Positions 1-47,779 of a stretch of 47,779 bases of DNA are shown here, piece by piece. Both the position numbers and the translations under genes were made by a program. A model generated the notes under the pieces. The model was not told the origin of the DNA and did not search any database. It worked only from the letters and a program-made list of their open reading frames with translations. The number at the start of each line of letters is the position of its first letter. Positions within the stretch are counted from its first letter, which is position 1. Source of the DNA: Acetobacteraceae bacterium AT-5844 (GTDB lineage: Bacteria; Pseudomonadota; Alphaproteobacteria; Acetobacterales; Acetobacteraceae). The DNA is taken from positions 33,715-81,493 of the forward strand of contig JH600062.1 in NCBI GenBank assembly GCA_000245075.1, in the 5' to 3' direction.

Positions 1-9
1 TATACGTTT

Positions 10-230
10 GATCCTTCTTTTTTCTTCGAGTTTGGCGTGGGGCTTCAGGATCGGGAGGGAATGCTCTTGATGATGTTGAAAATGGGCCACACGGGCTGAA
101 CCCTCAGTCGCCGGAGGTCATGGACCTCCGGCGCGACCCGACGCTTGGCCTCTCCAGCCTGCCCTACCCACAGCCACACCGGAAAAACTCGAAAAAAGAA
201 GATGGGGTCCGGGGAATTCTTTCCCCGGCC
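10..230 (+). repeat. Intergenic repeat copy 1 (type A ends)
   Basis: First of six related repeats. The T-rich left end (CTTCTTTTTTCTTCGAG, about 15-31) mirrors a right end with CTCGAAAAAAGAAGATGGGG (188-207). The right end carries a hairpin CCGGGGAA (209-216), loop TTCT, TTCCCCGG (221-228). The core has TCAGT followed by a perfect 11-bp hairpin, 109-119 with 123-133, loop ATG. Two stem pairs differ from the other copies and both arms changed together, so pairing is kept. The left outer hairpin seen in copies 2, 3 and 5 is not recognisable here. No coding region is supportable in 1-346. Confidence 0.85.
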
Positions 231-6071: not shown

Positions 6072-6659
6072 TTACGGGAGCAGCACGTGGTCGATGCCCT
6101 GCACGACCCCGTTGCTGGCCAGCACATCCGCCAGCACGATGCGGGCGGGGGGCTGCACATTCTGCCCGCCGACGCCGGTGCCGAAATTGCTGGAGGGTCC
6201 ACCCGAAGGCCGGGCCACCGCAATGGTGGGCACGCTGCCCGTACCATCCAGACGCACCAGCCCACCATTCAGGGAAGGGATATCCCGCTGCCCGCCCCGC
6301 ATGGTCTGCACGGTGACAACACCCGCGACGATATGATGCGTCACCAGTGCCTTCAGGCGGAACTGGTCCGGCGAGCCAGCCTGGCTGCCCTGTGACTGGC
6401 CCAGCAGGTCCTGAAGAAGGCCGGCCGGCATGCGGTCGAACGCAGCGTTGGTGGGGGCGAACACCGTCAGCGCCTGCGTGCCCTTCAGCCTGTCAATCTC
6501 GCCGGCGCGCTGCGCGATTTCCACGAAGCGGGAGAAATCGGAGACGCCTGCCAGAATGGTGGCGATGTCGCCCGTGACAGCGACCTGTGCGCGCAGGACG
6601 GCAGGGGCCGCAAGCATGCTGCCGAAAGCAGCGCCGAACACGGTACGGCGGGTGAGCAT
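6072..6659 (-). CDS. Secreted fasciclin (FAS1) domain protein
   Basis: A 195-residue protein with a Tat-like signal (TRRTVFGAAFGSMLAAPAVLRAQ) and one FAS1 domain: ALTVFAPTNAAFDRMP, then LKALVTHHIVAGVVT and a final LADVLASNGVVQGIDHVLLP, the H1 and H2 motifs of the family. FAS1 domains mediate adhesion or surface binding; the partner is unknown. A glycine/serine-rich insert (GGPSSNFGTGVGGQ) precedes the last motif. The ATG at 6659 is preceded by AGGAG at seven bases and is preferred to the in-frame TTG six bases upstream. It is transcribed away from the repeat lipoprotein gene. Confidence 0.88.
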   Translation of the reverse strand: MLTRRTVFGAAFGSMLAAPAVLRAQVAVTGDIATILAGVSDFSRFVEIAQRAGEIDRLKGTQALTVFAPTNAAFDRMPAGLLQDLLGQSQGSQAGSPDQFRLKALVTHHIVAGVVTVQTMRGGQRDIPSLNGGLVRLDGTGSVPTIAVARPSGGPSSNFGTGVGGQNVQPPARIVLADVLASNGVVQGIDHVLLP

Positions 6660-6925: not shown

Positions 6926-7324
6926 ATGCTGCGCCAGCGCGAGATCTTTTCCGCCATTGCCGTGTCCGCCCTGCTGCTGGGCCTGGCAGCCTGCGACAAT
7001 ACCAATACCGCCGCCACCCGCGCCGTTGACCGTACCGCCGGCACCAATACCTCCGGGGCCTATCCCACACAGTCGGATGGCACGCGCGCCAACCCGGCCG
7101 GAACGGAAGCCACCCGCGCCCTCGACCGCGCGGCCGGTACCAACACCTCCGGCGCCTATCCGCGGCAGTCCGATGGCAGGCCGAGCAATCCGCCGGGCAC
7201 GGAGGCCACGCGCGCTCTGGACCGCGCGGCCGGTACCAATACCTCCGGCGCCTATCCCATGCAGTCCGATGGCATGCCGGGCAATCCGCCGGGCACCGCG
7301 GCGGAGCGGGCCATCAACCGCTAA
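6926..7324 (+). CDS. Small lipoprotein made of three 32-residue tandem repeats
   Basis: A 132-residue protein. Residues 1-23 form a lipoprotein signal with lipobox LAAC, so Cys23 would be lipidated. Residues 30-61, 62-93 and 94-125 are near-identical 32-residue units containing ATRALDRAAGTNTSGAYP and a QSDG segment; a seven-residue start of a fourth unit ends the protein. At DNA level the units are 96 bp (7013-7108, 7109-7204, 7205-7300). GAGAGGGAG lies upstream of the ATG. I do not recognise a named family, though a surface or periplasmic structural role is possible. Repeat number may vary between strains. Confidence 0.8.
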   Translation: MLRQREIFSAIAVSALLLGLAACDNTNTAATRAVDRTAGTNTSGAYPTQSDGTRANPAGTEATRALDRAAGTNTSGAYPRQSDGRPSNPPGTEATRALDRAAGTNTSGAYPMQSDGMPGNPPGTAAERAINR

Positions 7325-7346
7325 GCCGCCATCAGGCAGGTTCTAA

Positions 7347-7500: not shown

Positions 7501-8814
7501 ATGACAGACACGATTTTCGCGCTGGCTTCCGGCGCCGGGCGGGCGGCCATCGCCGTGCTGCGACTCTCCGGCACGGGCTGCGCGGAGGTGGTGCGGGCCG
7601 TGGCGGGTGGCCTCCCGCAGCCCCGCAGCGCGAGCCTGCGCCGGCTCAGGGACCCGGCATCGGGCGAGACGCTGGATCAGGCCGTGGTCCTCTGGTTCCC
7701 GGCCCCGCGCAGCTATACCGGTGAGGACTCCGCCGAACTGCACCTGCATGGCGGCCGGGCGGTGCGGGAGGGTGTGAGCGCCGCGCTGGTCTCAGCGGGA
7801 GCCCGGCCTGCCGAGCCGGGGGAATTCACGCGCCGTGCCTTCCTGAATGGCAGGCTGGACCTGACGGCGGCGGAAGGTATCGCCGATCTGATTGATGCGG
7901 AAACCGCCGCCCAGCGGCGACAGGCGCTCCGCCAGGCGGGGGGAGCGTTGGCGGCGCGCTATGCAGGCTGGGCCGGGCGGCTGACCCGGCTGCTGGCACA
8001 CCAGGAAGCAGCCATCGAATTCGCCGAAGATGATCTGCCGAACGATCTGGAAGCGCAGATGCGGGACGGCGCCGCTGCCCTGGCCGCCCAGATCCGCGCC
8101 CATCTGGATGATGGGGGACGGGGCGAGCGGCTGCGTGAGGGGCTGTGGGCGGCCATCGTCGGCGCACCGAATGCGGGCAAGAGTTCGCTGCTGAACGCCC
8201 TGGCTGGGCGGGAGGCCGCCATTGTGTCTGCCCACGCCGGCACCACGCGGGATGTGGTGGAGGTGCGGCTGGACCTCGGTGGGGTACCGGTGCTGCTGGC
8301 CGATACCGCCGGGCTGCGGGATGCGCCGGACGAGATCGAAGCCGAAGGTGTGCGCCGCGCCCTGCGCCGCGCGGAAGAAGCGGATATCGTGATGGCCGTC
8401 TTTGCCGCGGACCGTACGCCTGATGCCGAGACTCTGGCGCTGGTGGCGCCGGGCGTGCTGGTCGTGGCCAACAAGACCGATCTGGCAGCGGCGCCCCGGG
8501 AGATTGGTGGCGTGGCACCGCTCGCGGTGTCCGCGCGCACCGGCCATGGGCTTGAGGCTCTGCAGGGAGTGCTTACCGAGATGGCGGCGGCCCGGGCGGG
8601 ACTGTCGGCGGAGGCCGGCCTGACCCGCCCCCGGCATCGCGCCGCCCTGCTGGATGCCGCCCGCTGGCTTGATGAAGCCGTGGCGGCACCGTTGCCGGAG
8701 TTGGCGTCCGAAGCCCTCCGCGCCGCTGTGCGATCCCTGGGACGGTTGACCGGCCATGTCGGCGTGGAAGACGTGCTGGACGTTGTGTTCGGGGATTTCT
8801 GCATCGGAAAATGA
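7501..8814 (+). CDS. mnmE: tRNA modification GTPase MnmE
   Basis: A 437-residue protein with all MnmE parts. The N-terminal folate-binding domain has SYTGEDSAELHLHGG and PGEFTRRAFLNGRLDL. The helical domain carries a GTPase insert with G1 GAPNAGKS (residues 221-228), DTAGLRD and NKTDL. The C-terminus ends in CIGK, whose Cys is characteristic. With MnmG it installs the (carboxymethyl)aminomethyl group at U34 of certain tRNAs. GGAGG lies eight bases before the ATG. It starts the run mnmE-mnmG-rsmG-parA-parB, 24 bp before mnmG. Confidence 0.97.
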   Translation: MTDTIFALASGAGRAAIAVLRLSGTGCAEVVRAVAGGLPQPRSASLRRLRDPASGETLDQAVVLWFPAPRSYTGEDSAELHLHGGRAVREGVSAALVSAGARPAEPGEFTRRAFLNGRLDLTAAEGIADLIDAETAAQRRQALRQAGGALAARYAGWAGRLTRLLAHQEAAIEFAEDDLPNDLEAQMRDGAAALAAQIRAHLDDGGRGERLREGLWAAIVGAPNAGKSSLLNALAGREAAIVSAHAGTTRDVVEVRLDLGGVPVLLADTAGLRDAPDEIEAEGVRRALRRAEEADIVMAVFAADRTPDAETLALVAPGVLVVANKTDLAAAPREIGGVAPLAVSARTGHGLEALQGVLTEMAAARAGLSAEAGLTRPRHRAALLDAARWLDEAVAAPLPELASEALRAAVRSLGRLTGHVGVEDVLDVVFGDFCIGK

Positions 8815-8838
8815 CGCGCGGGGCGGTATATCCCCGCC

Positions 8839-10704
8839 ATGCGCGACATGAATTTCGATGTGGTGGTGGTGGGCGGCGGCCACGCCGGCACCGAAGCCGC
8901 CGCCGCCGCCGCCCGCTGCGGAGCCCGGACGCTCCTGCTGACCCATAAGCTGGAAACGCTGGGGGAAATGTCCTGCAACCCGGCCATTGGCGGCGTGGGC
9001 AAGGGGCATCTGGTCCGCGAGATCGATGCGCTGGACGGCATCATGGGCCGGGCAGCGGATGCAGCCGGCATTCACTTCAAGCTGCTCAACCGCAGCAAGG
9101 GCCCCGCCGTGCGCGGCCCCCGCGCTCAGGCCGACCGCAAGCTCTACCGCAAGGCGGTGCAGGCGCTGCTGGCCGCACAGGCGAATCTGACCATTCTGCC
9201 TGTGGCGGCGGAGGGTATCGAGCGCGATGCCTCAGGCCGCATCTATGCCGTGCTGACGGCGGATGGCGCCCGCATTGCCTGCGGCGCGCTGGTCATCACC
9301 ACCGGCACCTTCCTGCGGGGTGAGATCCATATTGGCGAGACGCGCATCCCCGCCGGCCGCGTGGGCGACGCGCCCTCCATCGGGCTGGCGCAAGCTATAG
9401 AGGCGCTGGGCCTGCCCATGCGGCGGCTGAAGACAGGCACGCCGCCAAGGCTCGATGGCCGCACCATCGACTGGGCCGGGCTGGAGATGCAGCCAGGCGA
9501 TGCGGAGCCGGAGCCCCTCTCCTGGCTGACGGAGCGCATTACCAACCCCCAGGTGGAATGCGGCATCACCGCCACCACGCCGGAGGGACATGCGCTGATC
9601 CGTGCCAACCTGCACCGCGCGCCCATCCATTCGGGCCAGATCCAGGGCGTGGGGCCGCGCTATTGCCCCTCCATCGAGGACAAGATCGTGCGCTTCGCCG
9701 AGCGGGAGCGGCATCAGATCTTCCTGGAGCCGGAGGGGCTGGATGATCACACCATCTATCCCAACGGCATTTCGACCAGCCTGCCGGAGGATGTGCAGCG
9801 CGGCTTCATCGCCTCCATCCCAGGGCTGGAAAAGGCGGAGATCCTCCGGCCGGGCTACGCCATCGAGTACGATCATGTAGATCCCCGCGCGCTGAAGGCC
9901 TCTCTGGAGGTCAGGGATGTGCCGGGGCTGTTCCTGGCGGGGCAGATCAACGGCACCACCGGCTATGAGGAGGCGGGCGCACAGGGGCTTCTCGCGGGCC
10001 TGAACGCTGCCGCTCAGGCAGGCGGCGGGGAGGCCCGCACCCTGCCCCGCACGGCCGCCTATCTGGGCGTGATGGTGGATGACCTGACCCTTCAGGGTGT
10101 GAGCGAACCCTACCGCATGCTGACGGCGCGCGCCGAGCACCGGCTGGCGCTCCGGGCCGACAATGCCGGCATGCGGTTGACGGAGCTCGGCATCAGCTGG
10201 GGCTGCGTGGGCGCCGAGCGTGCCGCGAAGCACCGGGCCTTCGCGACGCAGGTGGCGGGGGCATTGGAGCGCGCCCGTGCGGAAGGCGGCACCCCCGCGG
10301 CGCTGAACAGTGCGGGCATTCCCATCAATCAGGATGGCCGCTGGCGGAATGTGCTGGAAGTACTGGCGCTGCCGGACATCGCTTCCGACGCACTGGAGCG
10401 CGCCTTCCCGTGGCTGGCCGAACTGCCGGTGGGCGTGCGGACCCAGTTGGAGGCGGAGGCTCTTTATGCGCCTTACCTCAACCGGCAGGCCGCCGAACTT
10501 CGGCTGATCGAGAAGGAGGAGCGCACGCCGATTCCGGCGGGGCTGGATTTCTCCACCATTTCAGGCCTTTCTAACGAGATGCGTCAGCGCCTTTCCGCCG
10601 CGCGCCCTGCCACGCTCGGCAGCGCCGGCCGCATCGCCGGCATCACCCCCGCCGCTCTCGCGGCCCTGGCGGTGCATCTCCGCAAGACTGAGCGTTTCAC
10701 GTGA
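8839..10704 (+). CDS. mnmG: tRNA uridine-5-carboxymethylaminomethyl(34) synthesis enzyme MnmG
   Basis: A 621-residue flavoprotein. The FAD-binding motif GGGHAG is at residues 12-17, followed by the family stretch [21 protein letters not shown] and [16 protein letters not shown], and later [20 protein letters not shown]. It partners MnmE in wobble-uridine modification. The ATG at 8839 is taken as start; an ATG at 8848 is also possible. The stop codon TGA (10702-10704) overlaps the GTG start of rsmG and lies inside a parS palindrome, so three functions share the same bases. Confidence 0.97.
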
Positions 10705-10708
10705 AACA
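10693..10708. promoter_or_regulatory. parS site 1 (ParB-binding palindrome)
   Basis: The sequence CGTTTCACGTGAAACA matches the conserved chromosomal parS consensus TGTTTCACGTGAAACA at 15 of 16 positions, with an unbroken 14-bp palindrome (10694-10707). It spans the mnmG stop and the rsmG GTG start. ParB would nucleate here as a CTP-dependent clamp, and ParA would move the complex. parA and parB follow within 1.5 kb. Confidence 0.95.
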
Positions 10709-11321
10709 GCCACCAATGCTCGACCTCCCCACCCCTGCTGTTTCACGTGAAACGACAGAGCGTATTGACGCCTTCGTTCCCCTGCTCCTGCGCTGGAATG
10801 CCCGCATCAACCTGATCGCGCCCACAACGGAGCAGGTGGTGCGGCAGCGCCACATTGCCGACTCCCTGCAATTGCTGCCGCTCATCCCACCGGGGGATAC
10901 GCCTCTGGGCGATATCGGCACCGGCGGCGGCTTTCCAGGGCTGGTGCTGGCCATGGCGGTAACGCGCCCCGTGCATCTGGTGGAATCCGACCGCCGCAAG
11001 GCAGCCTTCCTCCAGACGGCGGCCGGGGAACTGGGACTCGCGCATGTCCATGTCCATGCGGAGAGGATCGAATCTGTCAGCCTCCCTCCCCTCGGCGTGC
11101 TGACAGCGCGTGCGCTCGCACCTCTCGTAAAAATGCTACCCTGGGCAGAACGCCTGCTGGCGCCTGACGGAATTGCGATTTTCCCCAAGGGTCGCACAGC
11201 CATGGAAGAGCTGGAAGCTACCGCCCCAGACTGGACATTGTCCGCCGAGCGGTTCAAGAGCAGCACCGAACCCGACGCTTCCATCTTCCGCCTCTCGAGG
11301 ATTCGCCGTGCCGGGGCCTGA
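10701..11321 (+). CDS. rsmG: 16S rRNA (guanine527-N7)-methyltransferase RsmG
   Basis: A 206-residue SAM-dependent methyltransferase. [14 protein letters not shown] and the SAM motif [16 protein letters not shown] are the family signatures, followed by [13 protein letters not shown]. It methylates G527 of 16S rRNA. The start is GTG at 10701, overlapping the mnmG stop as GTGA. The N-terminal codons carry both halves of the parS region, including VSRET at residues about 14-18. The 3' end overlaps parA by 14 bases. Confidence 0.96.
10739..10754. promoter_or_regulatory. parS site 2 (ParB-binding palindrome)
   Basis: TGTTTCACGTGAAACG matches the parS consensus at 15 of 16 positions, with the 14-bp palindrome at 10740-10753. 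It is inside rsmG and encodes the residues VSRET. Its centre is 46 bp from that of site 1, so the pair forms a compact loading site. Confidence 0.95.
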
Positions 11322-12129
11322 CCGCACACCACGCCGTATCGCGCTCGCCAACCAGAAGGGTGGCGTGGGCAAGACCACCACCGCCATCAACCTGGCAACC
11401 GCCCTGGCCACCAAGAAGCGCGTCCTGGTCATTGACCTCGACCCGCAGGGCAACGCCTCGACCGGCCTCGGCCTGCCCCGCGCAGACCGCGGCAAAGGCA
11501 GCTATTCCCTCCTGATCGGGGAGCGCTCTCTCGGCGAGCTGATGCAACAGACCAAGGTGCCGAACCTCTTTCTGCTGCCCGCCGATAACGACCTTGCCGG
11601 CGCGGAGATCGAGCTGGTCGGCATGGACGACCGGGAGCACCGACTGAAGCAGGCGCTGGAAGCCGGGGCTGAGGCGCTGAAGGGCTTCGACTTCATCCTG
11701 ATCGATTGCCCCCCTTCCCTCGGCCTGCTGACGCTGAACGCGCTCGTGGCGGTGGAGTCCGTGATGATCCCGCTGCAGACAGAGTTCTTCGCGTTGGAAG
11801 GTGTCTCTCAGATCACCCGCACGATCGACCGGGTGAAGCGCGCCCTGAACCCGCGCCTGCAACTGGACGGTATCGTGCTGACCATGTTCGACCGCCGCAA
11901 CAACCTCTCGGAACTGGTGGCGGCCGATGTGCGTGCCTTCTTCCGGGACAAGGTGTTCGAGACCGTCATCCCCCGCAATATCCGCGTCAGCGAGGCGCCG
12001 TCCCACGGTCTGCCGGTGCTGCTTTACGATATGCGGTCCACCGGCGCGCAGGCTTATATCAAGCTTGCCGCTGAACTGCTGCGGCGCGAGCGCGCGGCCG
12101 CCAAACTCGCCGGAGCGCAAGCCGTATGA
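11308..12129 (+). CDS. parA: Chromosome-partitioning ATPase ParA (Soj-type)
   Basis: A 273-residue protein with the deviant Walker A KGGVGKTT at residues 17-24, the A' motif VLVIDLDPQGNAST and the Walker B-like FILIDCPPSLGLLTLNAL. It binds DNA nonspecifically as an ATP dimer and moves ParB-parS complexes. GTG at 11308 is preferred: it lies just before the conserved RRIALANQKGG, with CGAGGA upstream, and gives a normal length. It overlaps rsmG by 14 bases and parB by four (ATGA), suggesting coupled translation. Confidence 0.96.
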   Translation: MPGPDRTPRRIALANQKGGVGKTTTAINLATALATKKRVLVIDLDPQGNASTGLGLPRADRGKGSYSLLIGERSLGELMQQTKVPNLFLLPADNDLAGAEIELVGMDDREHRLKQALEAGAEALKGFDFILIDCPPSLGLLTLNALVAVESVMIPLQTEFFALEGVSQITRTIDRVKRALNPRLQLDGIVLTMFDRRNNLSELVAADVRAFFRDKVFETVIPRNIRVSEAPSHGLPVLLYDMRSTGAQAYIKLAAELLRRERAAAKLAGAQAV

Positions 12130-12983
12130 GCGGACGCAAACCCAACCGTCTGGGCATGGGCCTTTCCGCCCTGCTGGGAGACCAGCCGGGCACCGCCCCA
12201 TCCACCACCGCGCCCCGCACCCTGCCCGTCGAGGCGCTGGAGCCTGGGCCGTTCCAGCCGCGTGGGCCGATTGACCAGTCGGGCCTCGCCGAACTCGCAG
12301 CCTCCATCCGAGAGCATGGCGTGCTGCAGCCCATCCTGGTCCGCCCGAAGCCCGGCCATGCGGGCATTTACGAGATTATCGGCGGTGAGCGCCGCTGGCG
12401 TGCTTCCCAGCTGGCGCAGCGGCATGAAGTTCCGGTCGTGATCCACGACCTGGACGACCGCGCCGCCATGGCCGCCTCTCTGGTGGAGAACCTGCAGCGT
12501 GAGGATCTGAACGCGCTGGAAGAAGCCCAGGGCTATCGCCGCCTGACGGATGAGTTTGGTCTGACGCAGGACCATCTGGGCCGCGCCGTGGGCAAGAGCC
12601 GCAGCCATGTGGCCAATACGCTGCGCCTGCTGGGCCTGCCGCCCAAGGTGCGGGACATGCTGGGCCGCGGCAGCCTTTCCGCCGGCCACGCCCGCGCATT
12701 GCTGACGGCGCCGGACCCGGTGAAGCTGGCAGAACTGGTGGTCACGCGCGGGCTGAATGTCCGCCAGACCGAAGCCCTGGCCGCCTCCGCCGACAAGCCT
12801 CGCGCAGGCCGGGAAAAGGATGACGCCGAAACCCGGGCGCTGGAACGGGACCTGACCGAGAAGCTGGGGCTGAAGGTTGCCATTCGTCATGGCGGGCGCG
12901 GCGGGCAGGTGACCATCAGCTACAAGGATCTGGATCAGCTGGATGGCCTGATCCGCCTGCTGACGCCGGGCTCTTCATCCTGA
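12126..12983 (+). CDS. parB: Chromosome-partitioning CTPase ParB (Spo0J-type)
   Basis: A 285-residue protein. The N-terminal CTP-binding domain has EHGVLQPILVRP, GERRWRA and VENLQREDLNALEEAQGY; the central helix-turn-helix includes GKSRSHVANTLRLLGLP, which reads parS; the C-terminal part ends in a dimerisation region (LDGLIRLL). It should bind the two parS sites 1.4 kb upstream. It starts at the ATGA overlap with parA. Repeat copy 2 follows its stop within eight bases and probably acts as the operon's terminator. Confidence 0.97.
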   Translation: MSGRKPNRLGMGLSALLGDQPGTAPSTTAPRTLPVEALEPGPFQPRGPIDQSGLAELAASIREHGVLQPILVRPKPGHAGIYEIIGGERRWRASQLAQRHEVPVVIHDLDDRAAMAASLVENLQREDLNALEEAQGYRRLTDEFGLTQDHLGRAVGKSRSHVANTLRLLGLPPKVRDMLGRGSLSAGHARALLTAPDPVKLAELVVTRGLNVRQTEALAASADKPRAGREKDDAETRALERDLTEKLGLKVAIRHGGRGGQVTISYKDLDQLDGLIRLLTPGSSS

Positions 12984-12990
12984 AGAAAGG

Positions 12991-13240
12991 CTGGAGGGAG
13001 AAAGAATTCTCCCTCCAGGCCACCCTCATCTTTTTCTTCGAATTTGGGTCCAGGGCTTCCGGGCAGAACGGCAAGGCTCTCGGCGAAGCCAACAAGTCTA
13101 ACAAGCCACGGGCCGGTGCTTCAGTCGCCAAGATCCGACGCGTTCCCCGCAGCTCCGTGTCGGATCAACCCGCCCACCAAGCGCACCCTACAACTCGAAA
13201 AAGAAAAAGATGGGGGCTCGGGGGGAATTCATTCCCCCGC
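12991..13240 (+). repeat. Intergenic repeat copy 2 (type A ends, altered core)
   Basis: Lies between the converging parB and holA genes and fills the gap. The left hairpin is CTGGAGGGAGAA (12991-13002), loop AGAA, with a perfect partner to 13018, then a T-rich tract. The right end has CTCGAAAAAGAAAAAGATGGGGG and a hairpin GGGGGAA/TTCCCCC (13221-13238). The core keeps TCAGTCGCC (13121-13129), but the usual stem is replaced by GATCCGAC (13132-13139) pairing with GTCGGATC (13159-13166) across a 19-base loop. Each end can act as a terminator for transcription entering from its side. Confidence 0.85.
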
Positions 13241-13243
13241 TCT

Positions 13244-14281
13244 TCAGCCCCGCCGGCGCGCAGCGAAGGCCTGCCGGGCCAGGGTGAGGATTGCCGCACG
13301 GGCAATGGCCTGGTCCGGCACCGGCCGGGCGGCCGAGCTGGATTTGGTGCGCTTTTCAGCCTCCAGCAACGCGTCTCCGGCAGCCGCCAGAGAAGAGGGA
13401 GACCAGCAGCGCAGGGCACGCTCGAAGCCCGGCTTATGGCGGAAGAAAACGGGCGGGCGCAGCCCATCCAGCGCCGCGCCGGCAGGCGCCCCTTCCGCCA
13501 TGGCAAGGGATGCGAGATGCAGCCGCTGGACATGTCGCAAGGCCGCCCGCACCACCATCACCGGATGCGCGCCCTCGCTGAGCGCCACGTCCAGGGCGCG
13601 ATCCGCCACGGCGATCTCCCCGGCCGTGGCGGCAATCAAAGCCTCGTCCAGGTCCAGGGTAGAGCCATCGCCGACGCAGGCTAGGACGTCATCCTCCCCC
13701 AGATGCCCGCCTTCCCCGGCATAGAGGGCCAGCTTCTCGATCTCCCGGCGCAGCAGCATCCGATCCTCACCCAGCCGGCCAGCAAGCCATTCCAGGGCTG
13801 AGGGGTCGGCCTGCACACCCTGCTCCCGCAGCAGCGTGGCAATGGTGTTGGCGAGATCCGCCCCCCGTTCCCGGTAGCAGGCGATAACGGCCGCCTGGGG
13901 GTGGGGTTCCAGCAAGCTGCGCAGTTTGGCGCGGGCCGGCAACTCCCCGGCTTCCAACACCAGCAGCGTGTCGCCGGGCGTGGACAGGGCGTCTTTCACA
14001 CCGGTCGCCAAGGTGTCGGTGGCATCGCGCACACGGACCAGCCGGCGTCCGCCGGTCAACGCCAGGGCAGACATCTCCGCAGCCAGTGCGCCAGGCTTGG
14101 AGGCTGCATCACGCGGGAGGTCGGCGTAGCGGAAGGGATCATCACCGCCCAGCACGGCCTGTTGCAGGCCGTCTGCGCGCTCGCGAATCAGCCCCGCATC
14201 CTCGCCGTGCAGCAGCACGGCGCGCACAGGCCCCGGGTCCTTCAGGAAAGCAGCGACGCGGCGGGCATCCAGCTTGGCCAC
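13244..14281 (-). CDS. holA: DNA polymerase III subunit delta
   Basis: A 345-residue protein with the HolA layout: an N-terminal AAA+-like domain beginning with KLDARRVAAFLKDPG and VRAVLLHGEDAGLIRERAD, a middle lid, and a C-terminal helical collar domain with HPVMVVRAALRHVQRLHL. It opens the sliding clamp within the clamp loader. The start GTG at 14281 is four bases after the lptE stop and begins at the conserved AKLDARR; no strong ribosome site is visible, so translation may be coupled to lptE. Its stop lies three bases beyond repeat copy 2. Confidence 0.92.
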   Translation of the reverse strand: MAKLDARRVAAFLKDPGPVRAVLLHGEDAGLIRERADGLQQAVLGGDDPFRYADLPRDAASKPGALAAEMSALALTGGRRLVRVRDATDTLATGVKDALSTPGDTLLVLEAGELPARAKLRSLLEPHPQAAVIACYRERGADLANTIATLLREQGVQADPSALEWLAGRLGEDRMLLRREIEKLALYAGEGGHLGEDDVLACVGDGSTLDLDEALIAATAGEIAVADRALDVALSEGAHPVMVVRAALRHVQRLHLASLAMAEGAPAGAALDGLRPPVFFRHKPGFERALRCWSPSSLAAAGDALLEAEKRTKSSSAARPVPDQAIARAAILTLARQAFAARRRG

Positions 14282-27326: not shown

Positions 27327-27539
27327 GGCCGGGGAAAGAATTCCCCGGACCCCTTCTTTTTTTCTTCGAGAAAGAGCCGGGCCATCAGCAAGTTGGACGG
27401 CTCACTGGGGCTGAAATGGGCAGTGCGGGCTGAGACCTCAGTCGCAACCATCGCGCGGCGCAGAGATGTCCCCACCTCACGCGCTTCCTGAAACCCGAAG
27501 AAAAAAGATGGGGGCCTGGGGGAATTCCTTCCCCCAGCC
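27327..27539 (+). repeat. Intergenic repeat copy 3 (type A ends, degenerate core)
   Basis: Fills the gap between the helix-hairpin-helix gene and the convergent glgP. Left hairpin CCGGGGAA (27329-27336), loop AGAA, TTCCCCGG (27341-27348), then CCCCTTCTTTTTTTCTTCGAG. Right end CCCGAAGAAAAAAGATGGGGG, then hairpin CTGGGGGAA/TTCCCCCAG (27516-27537). The core keeps GGGCTGAGACCTCAGTCGC (27427-27445), but the following 11-bp stem is lost. Both ends are terminator-like when read inward. Confidence 0.83.
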
Positions 27540-33605: not shown

Positions 33606-33634
33606 TTGACTTCCCCACCCCTGCCGCCTAACCA
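33606..33634 (+). promoter_or_regulatory. Possible sigma-70 type promoter of the riboswitch operon
   Basis: TTGACT (33606-33611) and a weak -10 candidate TAACCA (33629-33634) are 17 bases apart. A start near 33641 would begin the transcript just at the riboswitch. The -35 fits well and the -10 poorly, so this is tentative. Confidence 0.35.
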
Positions 33635-33639
33635 CCATC

Positions 33640-33815
33640 ACTGCTGATGGTCCTTCCGGTGAGGAAGGTGAAAAGGGAACGCGGTGCAAGGCCGCGGCTG
33701 CCCCCGCAACTGTAGGCGGAGAGCGGAGTGCCGGAATGGCCACTGGGGTGCGCGCACCCCGGGAAGGCTGGCGCCCCGTGCCTGATCCGCGAGCCAGGAG
33801 ACCTGCCATCGCCGA
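33640..33815 (+). ncRNA. Cobalamin riboswitch
   Basis: Conserved elements are in order: a GGTCCTTCCGGTGAGGAAG stem, AAAAGGGAACGCGGTG, the GGCTGCCCCCGCAACTGTA junction (about 33697-33715), and the B12 box GCCAGGAGACCTGCC (33793-33807). It binds adenosylcobalamin-type corrinoids and should lower expression of the DUF1636-cobW-cobN-cobG-cobH-cobI-cobJ operon when the cofactor is plentiful. The 118 bases between it and the DUF1636 start hold GC-rich inverted repeats and no T-run, which favours control of translation over termination. Confidence 0.95.
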
Positions 33816-33932
33816 TAGGATCGTGCCGCCGGGCGGGGTGCCCCGGAGGCGGAAACGCGCCCGGAAGGCCCTGGCGCGTGGACCCTGCGTGTGCCGTGGC
33901 ATGCGAGGGGCGGTCGGCACCCCGTGCGTGGA

Positions 33933-41267: not shown

Positions 41268-42028
41268 GCACGGGCTCCCTCACCATCCTTGGCCTCGGCC
41301 CCGGCGATCCGGCGCAGCGCACGCCGGAGGTGGAGGCCGCACTTGGCGCCGCGACGGATGTGATCGGCTACTTCCCCTATGTGGAGCGGGTGCCGGAACG
41401 CCCGGGCCTGCGCCGCCATGCCAGCGACAACCGCGTGGAGCTGGACCGCGCCCGCCAGGCGCTGGAACTCGCCGCCGCGGGCGCGCATGTCGCCGTCGTG
41501 TCCGGCGGGGACCCCGGCGTATTCGCCATGGCGAGCGCGGTGTTCGAGGCCGTGGAGCATGGCGAGCCATCCTGGCGGTTGCTGGATATTCGTGTTCTCC
41601 CCGGCATTTCGGCGATGTTCGCCGCGGCTGCGAAGGTCGGCGCGCCCTTGGGGCATGATTTCTGCGCCATCTCGCTTTCCGACAACCTCAAGCCCTGGCC
41701 ACTGATCGAAAAGCGCCTGTGCGCAGCAGCGGAAGCGGGATTCGTCATCGCGCTCTACAATCCCATCTCCCGTGCCCGCCCCTGGCAGCTCGGCACGGCC
41801 TTCCAATTGCTGCGCGCGCATCTGCCCGCCGAAACACCCGTGATTTTCGCCATGGCGGTGACGCGGCCGGATGAGCAAATCGTCATTCGCTCTTTGCAGG
41901 AGGCCGATCCCTCGCTGGCGGATATGCGCACCCTGGTGCTGATCGGCAGCGCGGCGACGCGGCTCATCGAAAGGCCAGGGAAGGACAGGCCGTTCGTTTA
42001 TGCGCCGCGCAGCGTGGCGAAGCCGTGA
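41264..42028 (+). CDS. cobJ: Precorrin-3B C17-methyltransferase
   Basis: A 254-residue tetrapyrrole methylase that also carries out ring contraction. TILGLGPGDPAQRTPEVEAAL is the start, with DVIGYFPYVERV, VVSGGDPGVFAMASAVFE and FVIALYNPISRARPWQL characteristic of CobJ/CbiH. Last gene of the riboswitch-led operon; repeat copy 4 begins about 20 bases after its stop and contains several hairpins able to end transcription. Confidence 0.96.
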   Translation: MSTGSLTILGLGPGDPAQRTPEVEAALGAATDVIGYFPYVERVPERPGLRRHASDNRVELDRARQALELAAAGAHVAVVSGGDPGVFAMASAVFEAVEHGEPSWRLLDIRVLPGISAMFAAAAKVGAPLGHDFCAISLSDNLKPWPLIEKRLCAAAEAGFVIALYNPISRARPWQLGTAFQLLRAHLPAETPVIFAMAVTRPDEQIVIRSLQEADPSLADMRTLVLIGSAATRLIERPGKDRPFVYAPRSVAKP

Positions 42029-42050
42029 GGATGATGGCGGCCGGGGCCAA

Positions 42051-42307
42051 AGGGGGCGCTGCCCCCTCTGGACACCCCCACTGGGGTGGAAAGTCCATCC
42101 CGGACCCCGCTTCGAGTTTTTGTCTGATCCGGAAAACTCGAGATTTATCAAATAAAATCTCTGATCGACACGAGCTGATACGTCAGTCGCCGAGGGTCAT
42201 CGACCCTCGGCGGAACAACCGTGCCGCCTTGTCCCAAACAATTATGGCGGGGTCTGGGGGGATACTATCCCCCCAGCGGGGGTTCCAAGGGGGCAGCGCC
42301 CCCTTGG
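42051..42307 (+). repeat. Intergenic repeat copy 4 (type B ends), entering cobK
   Basis: Left end has AGGGGGC/GCCCCCT (42051-42067) and a second hairpin GGGGTGGA-AAG-TCCATCCC. Right end has the near-palindrome CTGGGGGGATA-C-TATCCCCCCAG (42254-42276) and CCAAGGGGGC/GCCCCCTTGG (42285-42307). The core TCAGT and 11-bp hairpin, CGCCGAGGGTC (42188-42198), loop ATC, GACCCTCGGCG (42202-42212), is perfect. The right end overlaps the last 14 codons and the stop of cobK. Confidence 0.87.
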
Positions 42308-43032
42308 CGGGCCATCAACCACGCCATCGCCCCATCCACATCTCCCACCATCTCCACCGCGACCGCGGGCGGGCGCTGCATCATAACGACGGGGATACCC
42401 ATCTCCCGCGCCGCCACCAGCTTCGCCGCCGTGGCGCTGCCGCCGGAGTTCTTGGTGACGATAGCCTGCACGCCACGGTCCTGCAGCAGGGCGCGCTCCG
42501 CCTCCAGCGCGAAAGGGCCTGTCGCGGTGATGATCTCCACATCCGGCGGCAGGCTCCCCACGTCCGGTGGGTCGACGCTGCGAATGATGTAGTGGTGCCA
42601 GGGGCATTTGCGGAATGCCGCCAACTCCTTCTGGCCGATGGTCAGCAGCACCCGCAGCGGCGCCGGCCCCAGCGAATGTGCGGCGGCGGCCATGTCCGGC
42701 ACCATCCGCCAATCGTCGCCGGGGGAGGGGGTCCAGGCGGGGCGTTCCAGCCGCAGAAGGGGGATGCCGCCCACGGCCGCCATGACATTCCGCGTCATCT
42801 GCGTGGCGAAGGGATGGGTGGCGTCAATCACCGCCTCGATACGCTGTTCCCGCAGATAGCGCCGCAGCCCCTCAACGCCGCCGAAGCCGCCGATCCGCCA
42901 TGGAATGGGTTGCGGGCGCGGCGCACGCGTGACGCCGGCCAGCGAGAGAATGGGCTCGAAACGCTCATCCCCCGCCAGCAGCCGTGCCAATGCGGAGGCT
43001 TCCGTCGTTCCTCCCAGCAGCAGAACCCGCAA
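42265..43032 (-). CDS. cobK: Precorrin-6A reductase
   Basis: A 255-residue Rossmann-type enzyme. LRVLLLGGTTEASALARLLAG is the NADPH-binding start; VIDATHPFATQMTRNVMAA and VTKNSGGSATAAKLVAAREMGIPVVMMQRP are family signatures. It reduces precorrin-6A to 6B. TTG at 43032 follows AGGAGG by nine bases and gives the family-typical N-terminus; the in-frame GTG at 43050 lies upstream of that site. The last residues (QGGAAPLEPPLGG) and the TAG stop are encoded by repeat copy 4. It diverges from cobL with the two start codons sharing base 43032. Confidence 0.9.
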   Translation of the reverse strand: MRVLLLGGTTEASALARLLAGDERFEPILSLAGVTRAPRPQPIPWRIGGFGGVEGLRRYLREQRIEAVIDATHPFATQMTRNVMAAVGGIPLLRLERPAWTPSPGDDWRMVPDMAAAAHSLGPAPLRVLLTIGQKELAAFRKCPWHHYIIRSVDPPDVGSLPPDVEIITATGPFALEAERALLQDRGVQAIVTKNSGGSATAAKLVAAREMGIPVVMMQRPPAVAVEMVGDVDGAMAWLMARQGGAAPLEPPLGG

Positions 43033-44246
43033 TGTCGATGACCTCCTCACACTGGCTGACCATACTGGGCATTGGGGAAGATGGGGTAGGCGGCCTTTCC
43101 CCGGCGGCGCAGGGTATGCTGCGCGGGGCCGGTGTCGTCTATGGCGGCAAGCGCCATCTGGCCCTGGCGGCCCCGCTGGTCACCGGCGAGGCGCGGCCAT
43201 GGCCCAGCCCCATGCAGGATGCCTGGCCGGAGTTGCTGGCATGCCGGCCGCGATCGACCGTGGTGCTGGCGTCGGGGGACCCGTTCTGCTTCGGCGTGGG
43301 CAGCCTGCTGGCCGGGCTGGTGCCGGCGGAGGAGATGCTGTGCGTGCCTGCGCCATCCGCCTTCGCCCTGGCTTGCGCACGGCTGCGCTGGGCCATGCAG
43401 GATTGCAGCACCATTTCCTTCTGCGGCCGCCCGCTTGAGCGAGTACAGCCCCTGTTGCAGCCCGGCGCCCGGCTGCTGGCACTTTCCGCCGATGCCAGCA
43501 CGCCCGCTGCCCTGGCGGCCTATCTTCGCCAGCACGGTTTTGGCGGCAGCCGCATGCATGTGCTGGAGGCACTGGGCGGCCCGGACGAGCGCATCACCAC
43601 CACCACGCCGGAGAGCTTCGCGCTGGCCCCCGCTGCGCTGAACATGGTGGCGCTGGAGGTCGTGGCGGGGCAGGGGGCGAGGGTGCTGCCGCTTACCACC
43701 GGCCTGCCGGACGATGTGTTCGAGCATGACGGGCAGATCACCAAAGCCGACATCCGCGCCGTCACACTGGCAAGGCTGGCGCCGCGCCAGGGGGAATTGC
43801 TGTGGGATATCGGCTGCGGCAGCGGCTCCATCGCCATCGAGTGGATGCTGCGCCACCCGGCCAACCGCGCCATAGGGCTGGAGCCCCGTGCAGACCGCGC
43901 CGCCCGTGCGATGCGCAATGCGCTGGCCCTGGGGGTGCCCGGCCTGAAAGTGGAACAGGGCAAGGCGCCGGAAGGACTGCACGGCCTGCCGCCGCCAGAT
44001 GCTGTGTTCATCGGCGGCGGCTGTGATGCTGCGGTGCTGGAGGCAGCCTGGGCAGCGTTGAAGCCAGGCGGACGGCTGGTGGCCAACGCCGTGACGGTGG
44101 AAACGGAAGCCCTGCTGCTGGCGAACTATGCACGGCTCGGCGCGCAGCTTTTCCGTATCGGGATAGAGCGGCTGGACATGATCGGCACACGCCATGGCTT
44201 CCGGCCGGCGATGACGGTGACGCAGCTGGTGGCAACCAAGTCATGA
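43032..44246 (+). CDS. cobL: Precorrin-6B C5,15-methyltransferase (decarboxylating), CbiE-CbiT fusion
   Basis: A 404-residue fusion. Residues 1 to about 200 are the CbiE-like methylase (LTILGIGEDGVGGLSPAAQG, VVLASGDPFCFGVGSLL), and the rest is CbiT (LLWDIGCGSGSIAIEWMLRHP, AVFIGGG). It methylates C5 and C15 and decarboxylates the C12 acetate. ATG at 43032, or 43038 two codons later, is the start; the upstream bases hold no strong ribosome site and belong to cobK. Repeat copy 5 follows five bases after the stop. Confidence 0.94.
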   Translation: MSMTSSHWLTILGIGEDGVGGLSPAAQGMLRGAGVVYGGKRHLALAAPLVTGEARPWPSPMQDAWPELLACRPRSTVVLASGDPFCFGVGSLLAGLVPAEEMLCVPAPSAFALACARLRWAMQDCSTISFCGRPLERVQPLLQPGARLLALSADASTPAALAAYLRQHGFGGSRMHVLEALGGPDERITTTTPESFALAPAALNMVALEVVAGQGARVLPLTTGLPDDVFEHDGQITKADIRAVTLARLAPRQGELLWDIGCGSGSIAIEWMLRHPANRAIGLEPRADRAARAMRNALALGVPGLKVEQGKAPEGLHGLPPPDAVFIGGGCDAAVLEAAWAALKPGGRLVANAVTVETEALLLANYARLGAQLFRIGIERLDMIGTRHGFRPAMTVTQLVATKS

Positions 44247-44251
44247 AAGTG

Positions 44252-44466
44252 CTGGAGGGAGAAGGAATTCTCCCTCCAGACCACCCTCATCTTTTTCTTC
44301 GAGTTGGAGCATCAAGGCCGGAGGGCATTGCCACAGGAGTTTTATAAGCAACTCGGGCTGCACTCTCAGTCGCCGAGGGTCCAAGACCCTCGGCGGAATC
44401 CGCATCCAGCGGGTAAACTCGAAGAAAAGAAAGAATGGGGGCCTGGGGGAAATTCCTTTCCCCCAG
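44252..44466 (+). repeat. Intergenic repeat copy 5 (type A ends), inside the cob cluster
   Basis: The best preserved copy. Left hairpin CTGGAGGGAGAA (44252-44263), loop GGAA, partner to 44279, then a T-rich CATCTTTTTCTTCGAG. The core TCAGT is followed by CGCCGAGGGTC (44371-44381), loop CAA, GACCCTCGGCG (44385-44395). Right end CTCGAAGAAAAGAAAGAATG, then hairpin CTGGGGGAAA/TTTCCCCCAG (44443-44466). It separates cobL from cobE, which are on the same strand, so it would interrupt read-through unless transcription passes it. Its left hairpin is almost identical to that of copy 2. Confidence 0.9.
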
Positions 44467-44492
44467 CCTTCCCTCCACCCAGGACGACCCCA

Positions 44493-44864
44493 ATGATCGT
44501 CGCAGGCCTCGGCTGCCGCACTCAGATTACCGAAGAGGCAGTGCTCGCCATTCTGCGCAGGGCAGGGGAGGGCCTTCCGCCCATCACCCACATCGCGGCC
44601 CCTCATTTCCGGCACGGCACGGCGGCGCTTCATGCCGTAGCCGCCATGCTCCAACTTCCCCTGCTCTGGGTGGAGCGGAGGGCGCTGGAGGCGGTGCAGC
44701 CGCGATGCCCTACCCGCTCGGAGGCCGCCTTGCGCGCCACGGGCCTGGCCTCCGTGGCCGAGGGCTGTGCGCTGGCCGTGGCGGGACATGGCGGGCGGTT
44801 GCTGCTGCCCCGCATGGATGGGGCTGGCGTCACCTGCGCCGTCGCGGCAGGAAGCACCGCATGA
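44493..44864 (+). CDS. cobE: CobE-like protein (CbiG C-terminal domain)
   Basis: A 123-residue protein. [20 protein letters not shown] matches the GxGCrxg start of the CbiG_C/CobE family, with [21 protein letters not shown] and [15 protein letters not shown] typical of the rest. Members act with ring contraction or deacetylation steps, and the precise role in the aerobic route is unsettled. Only AGGA is visible before the ATG. It begins 27 bases after repeat copy 5 and overlaps cobM by four bases, so its promoter is either inside or near the repeat or further upstream. Confidence 0.85.
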
Positions 44865-47544: not shown

Positions 47545-47779
47545 CTGGGGGCTCTGCCCCCAGACCCCCGCCGGGGTGGAAAGTCCACCCCGGGCCCCGC
47601 TTCAAATTGGGATTGCGCCACGGCCCACAGCCGAACGCCACAAAAGAGCGATTTCAAATATTTATATAAGGCCACGCGGGCTGAACCCGCAGTCGCCGAG
47701 GGTCGAAGACCCTCGGCGCACCCCAGCGTACAAACACACTGAAAAACTGATGGCGGGGTCTGGGGGGATACTATCCCCC
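47545..47779 (+). repeat. Intergenic repeat copy 6 (type B ends), cut by the window end
   Basis: Left end has CTGGGGGC-TCT-GCCCCCAG (47545-47563) and GGGGTGGA-AAG-TCCACCCC (47573-47591). GCGGG-CTGAA-CCCGC precedes the core hairpin CGCCGAGGGTC (47694-47704), loop GAA, GACCCTCGGCG (47708-47718). The right end (ATGGCGGGGTCTGGGGGGAT onward) matches copy 4 until the window stops, so the element is incomplete only because of the window. Confidence 0.87.

What the first reader, a model, noticed from the sequence alone, without database searches (positions are those of the whole stretch)
44252..44466. A six-copy family of hairpin-bounded intergenic repeats that I cannot name
Copies lie at about 10-230, 12991-13240, 27327-27539, 42051-42307, 44252-44466 and 47545-47779. 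Each is 210-260 bp with inverted ends (an outer hairpin, then a T-rich tract reading inward) and a central TCAGTCGCC or close variant. That is one per 8 kb here, and none lies within an operon core except by replacing the gap. The ends read like terminators from both sides. The size, terminal inverted repeats and conserved centre fit a miniature mobile element that has been co-opted as a bidirectional terminator.
Basis: partly seen in the sequence, partly recalled or inferred. Interest (0 to 1): 0.85.

Follow-up and report, generated by a model that had tools for sequence, protein, structure and literature searches.

The report
Composite hairpin repeat near replication origin
The six copies are real members of a large family of about 240-base repeats, for which I found no published name, that sit mostly where two genes end facing each other and that crowd around the replication origin in the three related genomes where position could be measured.

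Summary
All six copies are real; the host genome (a Roseomonas relative, 5.19 Mb) has 89 full-length matches to the core, 39 of them in the model's training set. Each unit has two inverted hairpin "ends", of at least three types, around one polar core: a tag, GGCCACGCGGGCTGANCCCTCAGT, then an 11-bp hairpin with compensatory changes.

Copies favour 3' gaps: 29 of 48 classified own copies lie between convergent genes, against 58 of 356 gene pairs. Core direction is random relative to genes. At nine orthologous pairs core and ends keep 69-75% identity, spacers 50-51%. On the large contigs of three assemblies, one from a second genus, cores cluster around parB. Sister species carry another core between similar ends.

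"Bidirectional terminator" fits the location, less the signature: 0 of 60 inward-reading and 18 of 71 outward-reading A/B hairpins have a canonical T-tract. "MITE" is unproven: no target duplication seen, no Y1 transposase in 12 genomes. Best reading: a REP/BIME-like composite 3'-end element carrying a DNA-level site. New variant of a known kind.

The parts
1..230 (+). Copy 1, type B ends; left hairpin lies beyond a 20-N assembly gap (cut copy). Core at 75-145, right hairpin 209-228.
12991..13238 (+). Copy 2, type A left hairpin 12991-13018, right hairpin 13220-13238, diverged core 13094-13174 (29.2 bits); between convergent parB (+) and gene 13244-14281 (-)
27329..27537 (+). Copy 3, type B ends (27329-27348 and 27516-27537), diverged core 27409-27479 (37.1 bits), convergent gap
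42047..42307 (+). Copy 4, type C double-hairpin ends (outer hairpins 42047-42071 and 42285-42307), core 42154-42224 (58.9 bits), convergent gap; the same gap holds a core-bearing element in G001 and G007
44252..44466 (+). Copy 5 (the given finding): type A left hairpin 44252-44279, right hairpin 44443-44466; lies between two same-direction genes of the cobalamin region
44337..44407 (+). Core of copy 5 (72.2 bits): tag plus hairpin
44371..44395 (+). Covarying hairpin CGCCGAGGGTC-CAA-GACCCTCGGCG of copy 5, directly 3' of the CAGT of the tag
47547..47779 (+). Copy 6, type C ends, core 47660-47730 (84.3 bits); right end cut by a 20-N gap
12126..12983 (+). parB (ParB_N, HTH_ParB, ParB_C), with parS-like palindromes at 10694 and 10740: origin-proximal context, not part of the element

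Best explanation
It is a composite 3'-end repeat: two hairpin end modules in inverted orientation around a REP-like tagged palindrome. SHOWN by sequence: the unit (end hairpins 174-285 bp apart in the own-genome set), fixed polarity of core to ends, compensatory changes in the core hairpin, preference for convergent gaps, random core direction relative to genes, better conservation of core and ends than of spacers at orthologous sites where both keep a core, and origin-proximal clustering on three large contigs. INFERRED: (1) the end hairpins fold in the 3' ends of the two incoming mRNAs and stop RNA polymerase or protect the 3' ends, possibly with Rho or a processing step because the T-tract is mostly displaced; (2) because core direction does not follow the genes, the central palindrome acts as a DNA site (protein-bound or cruciform), as E. 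coli BIME-2 does for gyrase, absorbing transcription-driven supercoiling where convergent genes meet near the highly dosed origin; (3) copies arise by an unidentified copy or conversion process that homogenises them within a genome, and are lost by deletion between the outer hairpins, leaving one composite hairpin.
For: Location: convergent 29 of 48 classified own copies against 58 of 356 adjacent pairs; relatives 36 of 61 against 75 of 432; divergent 3 of 48 and 2 of 61. Direction random: convergent 12+/17- and 20+/16-; tandem 19 same, 20 opposite. Core hairpin: 97.2% of cells paired against 92.2% in shuffles and at most 50.5% when slid; 38 double-change cells against 11.1; 5 pairs with double changes against 3.1. 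At 9 orthologous pairs mean identity is core 0.73, ends 0.69 and 0.75, spacers 0.50 and 0.51, coding flanks 0.75 and 0.83. In own loci all 44 two-ended groups of hairpins hold a core, 36 by regex and 8 by R1. Clustering: G001 12 of 15 listed cores within 250 kb of parB (2.1 expected), G007 28 of 32 within 750 kb (12.7 expected), G129 22 of 24 in the parB half. Gyrase at BIME-2: PMC6379681, passages.
Against: Canonical T-tracts are absent from most ends, so termination is unproven. No protein partner is known. The covariation rests on a few ancestral stem types, and one measure, the number of further pair types, is not above shuffles (8 against 10.0, 500 of 500). The identities come from pairs chosen because both keep a recognisable core, which favours the core; in G002 and G013 the copy-4 gap keeps the ends and not the core. 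Clustering could reflect retention in the stable core genome: PMC3733652 notes GTAG REPs restricted to core-genome regions in two species (passage). Seven of 17 genus members lack the core at E<=1e-5, so it is dispensable. In G014 the related ends and core 2 are not clustered overall (R=0.159, P=0.45, 32 places of a capped list), though 11 of 32 lie within 175 kb of parB (threshold chosen after looking). The excess of long convergent gaps near parB seen in G007 is absent in G001.
Confidence: 0.45

Rival explanations
1. Non-autonomous mobile element (MITE): a transposase acting in trans recognises the inverted ends and moves the unit; the 3'-end location is selection after insertion.
For: Type A left ends 93-100% identical over about 55 bp at 14 listed places of the own genome, fixed polarity, patchy presence in 10 of 17 genus members, short or core-less orthologous gaps.
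Against: No target duplication seen by eye at 33 copies; no ORF-bearing long version was met among the loci read, though no systematic search for one was made; ends occur solo and with other middles; hybrid end pairs exist; several sites are shared between species; one absence reads as an internal deletion.
Confidence: 0.25
2. True REP mobilised by a RAYT (Y1) transposase.
For: A conserved tag directly 5' of a variable-stem palindrome, high copy number, 3'-gap location.
Against: The tag is CAGT, not GTAG or CGTC; the stem has 11 bp with G-C first pairs, not the 8-9 bp with A-T first pairs of CGTC REPs; Y1_Tnp PF01797 in 0 of 12 genomes, control positive in 5 of 14; no replication-strand bias among the 32 listed G007 cores (18 against 14, counted by hand).
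Confidence: 0.05
3. Origin clustering is passive: old elements survive only in the stable, syntenic origin half, and gene turnover has removed them elsewhere.
For: Orthologous sites are shared across species 71-96% identical in flanking genes; precedent of core-genome-restricted REPs (PMC3733652, passage); in G001 convergent gaps over 150 bp are no commoner near parB (2 of 27) than far (2 of 37).
Against: In G007 convergent pairs are as common far from parB as near it (34 per 240 kb, 24 per 160 kb), yet gaps over 150 bp are 3 of 34 far against 12 of 24 near; near-identical type A copies in the own genome point to recent spread as well.
Confidence: 0.38
4. Strand-specific structured RNA in 3' UTRs (regulatory RNA or sRNA).
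For: Strong folding and stem covariation.
Against: Core direction is random relative to genes, 19 against 20 in tandem gaps; no Rfam match even at E<=1 in L001-L003.
Confidence: 0.08
5. Nothing special: unrelated convergent terminators that look alike.
For: Ends are terminator-like hairpins found solo in relatives.
Against: 89 full-length core matches with fixed polarity and spacing; covariation.
Confidence: 0.02

Closest known systems
REP/BIME elements (GTAG and CGTC superfamilies, Di Nocera 2013, PMC3733652; BIME-2 as gyrase sites, PMC6379681)
   Same: High-copy intergenic palindromes with a short conserved unpaired tag at one end, variable stems, convergent and tandem 3' gaps; some REPs are nested in larger palindromes (PMC3733652, passages)
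   Different: Different tag (CAGT), longer G-C-led stem, one core per unit between two hairpin end modules, no Y1 transposase in 12 genomes, origin-proximal clustering (the paper says most of its REP families are spread throughout the genome), and in a family (Acetobacteraceae) where the paper reports CGTC repeats missing
Bacterial MITEs (RUP, NEMIS, ERIC class, as listed in the background of PMC3733652)
   Same: About 240 bp, inverted terminal sequences, intergenic
   Different: No target duplication or partner transposase found; ends are exchangeable modules; core is kept at several orthologous sites
Bidirectional intrinsic terminators
   Same: GC-rich hairpins in convergent 3' gaps, T-rich stretch nearby
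   Different: The T-run starts 3-13 nt after the stem in all 60 inward A/B hairpins; a conserved core is enclosed
Macrodomain sites such as matS/MatP of the E. coli Ter region (recalled, not from a call)
   Same: Short repeated intergenic site confined to one part of the chromosome
   Different: Here origin rather than terminus, a composite hairpin element, and no binding protein known

Membership tests
GTAG REP | GTAG tag at the end of a 20-40 bp palindrome | tested here: not met
   The base of the stem is preceded by CAGT (alignment A1; relatives); the 102 cores were picked with CAGTCGCC (one mismatch allowed), so their tag is by construction
GTAG REP | Associated RAYT/Y1 transposase | tested here: not met
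   PF01797 in 0 of 12 genomes; control rings in 5 of 14
CGTC REP | CGTC (or TGTC/CCTC) tag, 8-9 bp stem with A-T first two pairs, loop 4-5 | tested here: not met
   Criteria from PMC3733652 section 6; core has CAGT, 11-bp stem starting C-G, mostly a 3-nt loop
BIME | Several REPs in alternating orientation | tested here: not met
   One core per unit; the two gaps with doubled cores (L017, L019) adjoin N gaps
BIME | Gyrase, Pol I or IHF binding | not testable with these tools
   Needs ChIP or Topo-seq
MITE | Terminal inverted repeats, under about 300 bp | tested here: met
   Type B left and right ends are reverse complements over about 48 bp (read; fold of L011 copy)
MITE | Target-site duplication | tested here: not met
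   33 copies with both boundaries printed, none seen by eye; boundaries are fuzzy, no statistic computed
MITE | Autonomous partner with the same ends | tested here: inconclusive
Intrinsic terminator | Stem followed within 0-2 nt by a T-rich tract (5 T in 8) | tested here: not met
   0 of 60 inward A/B, 9 of 44 right-type outward, 0 of 8 type C; 9 of 27 type A left ends outward. A minority of ends does meet it
Intrinsic terminator | Location at gene 3' ends | tested here: met
   Convergent enrichment; transcripts themselves not observed
Any Rfam family | Score above gathering threshold | tested here: not met
   Window: only the cobalamin riboswitch; L001-L003 at E<=1: none

The most novel reading that the evidence does not exclude
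The core is an origin-domain organising site: a protein (nucleoid-associated, SMC-related or topoisomerase) binds the tagged palindrome, and its density, high around oriC/parS and very low in the terminus half of three large contigs from two genera, marks or builds an origin macrodomain, with the paired hairpins keeping RNA polymerase off the site.
Probability: 0.13. Interest if true: 0.85.

Novelty: new variant of a known kind. Interest (0 to 1): 0.55.

Why it matters
Small repeats at gene ends are common, and their roles have long been argued over. This family has three properties that make the argument testable: the centre is a cassette that differs between sister species while similar ends stay; core and ends persist better than the spacers at orthologous sites, which helps to separate functional parts from filler; and the elements crowd around the replication origin. 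Together they offer a natural experiment on whether such repeats serve transcript ends, chromosome topology or only themselves. They also coincide with 17 of 18 assembly gaps in the own-genome stretches read.

Tried and rejected
Outer helix around the core hairpin (GGCTG with a downstream CAGCC): tempting in some copies and in G031; rejected, mean best helix 4.87 against 4.83 in shuffles, 75 of 81 copies used.

Rfam: only the cobalamin riboswitch at gathering level, nothing at E<=1 in three loci. Y1/RAYT: none in 12 genomes. Replication-strand bias: none among the 32 listed G007 cores (18 against 14, my count). Strand-specific RNA: rejected on random direction. Plasmid collection: only the right-end hairpin (query 229-271) matched in the best places listed, 5 records and 8 places in Roseomonas/Pseudoroseomonas, never the core (one place opened).

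Solo ends as the basic unit of the own genome: of 57 hairpin groups in the own loci, 44 are two-ended and 13 lone; 12 of the 13 lie at a contig end or N gap, and at the other (L021:14614) the left end was not matched although a core is there. In relatives solo ends are real.

A first gene-caller model was poor and was replaced. One search used 45 own copies and 62 of 64 relatives' copies (L084:50 and L083:13444 left out by oversight, and diverged own copies missed by regex); redid it with all 52 own R1 cores in the held stretches and all 64, and its numbers are the ones reported. One search had not counted type A left ends read outward; one search added them. Two scripts gave empty output from a wrong option or a bug, redone. 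My regex core detector missed diverged cores (for example G007 at the copy-4 gap, which R1 finds), so the 'gap no core' counts are upper bounds. In one search, 3 of 12 pairs dropped out because the regex found no core or no end.

On rechecking I raised passive retention from 0.35 to 0.38, because G001 does not show the gap-length contrast of G007.

Literature: the listings showed no paper naming such a repeat in Roseomonas, Pseudoroseomonas or Acetobacteraceae; most subscription journals are outside that library. PMC3733652: abstract, background, start of results, section 6 and passages seen. PMC12306157 and PMC6379681: passages only. Other listed papers: listing and start of abstract only.

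Full report
WHAT IS THERE. The six places were read directly and all hold the object. Copy 5 was compared with the own genome (G000, 5,190,553 bases, 157 contigs; the window is C153:33715-81493): 72 blastn pieces, best non-self E 3.9e-33, 40 of 115 candidates scored. Twenty stretches (356,635 bases), chosen around matches, were fetched. Of 57 hits to CTCAGTCGC (one mismatch allowed) followed by complementary sequence, most are clear copies; 39 cores including all six window copies were aligned (A1). A covariance model, R1 (71 positions, 15 pairs), finds 89 distinct full-length places of 29 bits or more in the own genome (my count; 150 of 4843 candidates scored); the 39 training cores are among them by construction.

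ANATOMY. The core is a 24-nt tag, consensus GGCCACGCGGGCTGANCCCTCAGT, followed at once by an 11-bp hairpin with a 3-nt (sometimes 6-nt) loop, CGCCGRRGGYC. Over A1, 97.2% of cells pair (shuffles 92.2%, slid partners at most 50.5%); 5 of 11 pairs of the hairpin have changes on both sides (3.1 in shuffles, reached by 3 of 500); 38 double-change cells against 11.1. One measure goes the other way: further pair types 8 against 10.0 in shuffles. A few ancestral stem types carry most of these cells (26 distinct stems in 102 cores of 9 genomes; those cores were picked by CAGTCGCC with one mismatch allowed). The small CTGA/TCAG helix has no double changes. Around the core lie spacers and two inverted end modules. 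Type A left: CTGGAGGGAGAAAGAATTCTCCCTCCAG. Type B: CTGGGGAAAGAATTCCCCAG with its reverse complement at the other end. Type C: a GGGGGCGCTGCCCCC-like hairpin plus CCGGGGTGGAAAGTCCACCCCGG on the left and CTGGGGTGACACTGTCACCCCAG or a GATACTATC version on the right. In the own loci 57 groups of end hairpins were found: 44 two-ended, 174-285 bp from first to last hairpin, and 13 lone. All 44 hold a core, 36 by regex and 8 by R1. Of the 13 lone ones 12 lie at a contig end or N gap. Polarity of core to ends is the same in the own and related copies read.

WHERE IT SITS. With a home-made codon-usage gene caller, the 52 own R1 cores in held stretches fall: convergent 29, tandem 16, divergent 3, edge 4; all adjacent gene pairs in the same stretches: 58, 239, 59. 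The 64 relatives' cores: 36, 23, 2, edge 3, against 75, 287, 70 (the first count had missed some copies and gave 24, 14, 3, 4 and 35, 23, 2, 2). The background includes the element gaps themselves, and the stretches were chosen around hits. Core direction does not follow the genes (convergent 12+/17- and 20+/16-; tandem 10 and 9 same, 6 and 14 opposite), which speaks against a strand-specific RNA and for a DNA-level or symmetrical role. In several copies the end hairpin starts within about ten bases of a stop codon (by eye).

TERMINATOR OR NOT. The whole unit folds strongly on both strands (z -4.1 to -13.9 against mononucleotide shuffles, 8 elements). But 0 of 60 inward-reading A/B end hairpins have 5 T in 8 within 0-2 nt of the stem; in all 60 the T-run comes 3-13 nt later. 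Read outward, 9 of 44 right-type hairpins and 9 of 27 type A left hairpins are canonical; of 8 type C hairpins none. The consensus scan found none at 41,900-44,600 (copies 4 and 5); in L025 it found one of 5 predicted sites at an element, the outward type A end at 6283-6310. So a 3'-end role rests on location; canonical intrinsic termination is not shown for most ends.

ORIGIN CLUSTERING. On the large contig of three assemblies (10, 8 and 5 contigs), treated as a circle, with parB as origin proxy: G001, 12 of the 15 listed cores (of 17 matches) within 250 kb, 2.1 expected, R=0.945; G007, 28 of the 32 listed (of 36 matches) within 750 kb, 12.7 expected, R=0.677; G129, 22 of 24 in the parB half, R=0.638 (parB; one further match on contig 2). 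None of 100,000 random draws reached R in any of the three; for the median distance to parB P was below 1e-5, 5.2e-4 and 3.3e-3. GC skew in evenly spaced samples of G001 goes from negative to positive between 540 and 720 kb and back between 2.34 and 2.52 Mb, as expected for an origin near parB; G007's skew is noisier, with the first change at about 0.2-0.6 Mb, not exactly at parB. Independent R1 scans of 20 evenly spaced 20-kb samples found cores in 3 of 20 stretches of G007, all within 736 kb of parB, and in 2 of 20 of G001, the two nearest parB, plus one weak match about 200 kb away. Hairpin ends follow the same pattern: G007 14 in the 8 nearest stretches, 2 in the other 12; G001 3 and 0. 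In G007 convergent gaps over 150 bp are 12 of 24 near and 3 of 34 far, Fisher P 6.6e-4 (the 750-kb cut was chosen after seeing the pattern); G001 does not show this (2 of 27 near, 2 of 37 far). The own genome's contigs are unordered, so clustering there was not tested.

EVOLUTION. The parB gap (copy 2) in 12 relatives holds nothing element-like (G016 11 bp, G005 41, G008 39, G001 78), one end only (G002, G013), other paired ends (G006, G009, G010, G011), a long gap with several hairpins (G004), or an unrelated 318 bp (G015). The copy-4 gap, compared in 7 relatives with both flanks found, holds core-bearing elements in G001 and G007, two ends with a decayed middle in G002 and G013, and no gap in G003, G005 and G016. 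The copy-5 gap is 10 bp in G002 and G013, has two ends without core in G007, two ends with another, longer middle in G004, one hairpin in G003 and G005, and none in G001 and G016. Between G013 and G002 (flanks 94-96% identical) one 275-bp element is matched by a 24-bp composite hairpin made of the left half of one outer hairpin and the right half of the other; this fits deletion between inverted hairpins, though insertion into a hairpin is not excluded. At 9 of 12 attempted orthologous pairs (some sharing a locus, all chosen because both keep a core) mean identities are: core 0.73, left end 0.69, right end 0.75, spacers 0.50 and 0.51, coding flanks 0.75 and 0.83. Stem types are genome-specific (own GAGGGCC, GAGGGTC, GGAGGTC; G001 and G013 mostly GGAGGTC), which hints at homogenisation within genomes.

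EXCHANGEABLE CENTRE. In G006, G009, G010, G011 and G014, which have no core or next to none, similar paired ends enclose another conserved centre, GGCGTCCCGCC...GGCGGCAGCCTGACAG. So the ends are the wider theme and the centre is clade-specific.

INTERPRETATION. The object works like a REP/BIME-type 3'-end repeat but passes neither REP superfamily's tag test, and no Y1 transposase was found. MITE defining features beyond size and inverted ends were not met or not decided. I favour a composite 3'-end element with a DNA-level central site, confidence 0.45; passive retention is the strongest rival for the clustering, transposition for the spread.

Noticed in passing
L120-L124, L129-L133, L138, L139 (G006, G009, G010, G011, G014): A second conserved centre (GGCGTCCCGCC...GGCGGCAGCCTGACAG) sits between similar paired ends in sister species that lack the TCAGTCGCC core; its CGTC-then-palindrome look recalls CGTC REPs, which PMC3733652 reports missing from Acetobacteraceae.
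   Followed up: partly
window 1-20; L026:3393; L083:9569; L087:773 and 2639: A perfect palindrome AAACGTATACGTTT (in ATCAAACGTATACGTTTGAT or CGCAAACGTATACGTTTGCG) is embedded in the end hairpin of some copies in three species; copy 1 of the window appears to carry it across the N gap.
   Followed up: partly
window edges; L010-L024: 17 of 18 runs of 20 N in the own loci lie inside copies of this element (16 flagged, one more by reading), including both window edges.
   Followed up: yes
window 7501-12983, 10694, 10740: Classic origin-proximal order mnmE-mnmG-rsmG-parA-parB with two parS-like palindromes (mnmE, mnmG, rsmG and parA named from position and size, recalled; parB by Pfam).
   Followed up: partly
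window 33631-33824: Cobalamin riboswitch (RF00174, 130.9 bits) at the head of a long cobalamin gene region that carries three of the six copies.
   Followed up: no
window 7013-7328: Three direct repeats of 124 nt at 96-nt spacing at a predicted ORF, 6926-7324.
   Followed up: no
L085 against L092 (G002/G013): A 275-bp element in one species is replaced by a 24-bp composite hairpin in a sister 94-96% identical in the flanks, a possible route from double to solo hairpin.
   Followed up: yes
L040 (G004 parB gap): 671-bp gap with several end hairpins stacked between two convergent genes.
   Followed up: no
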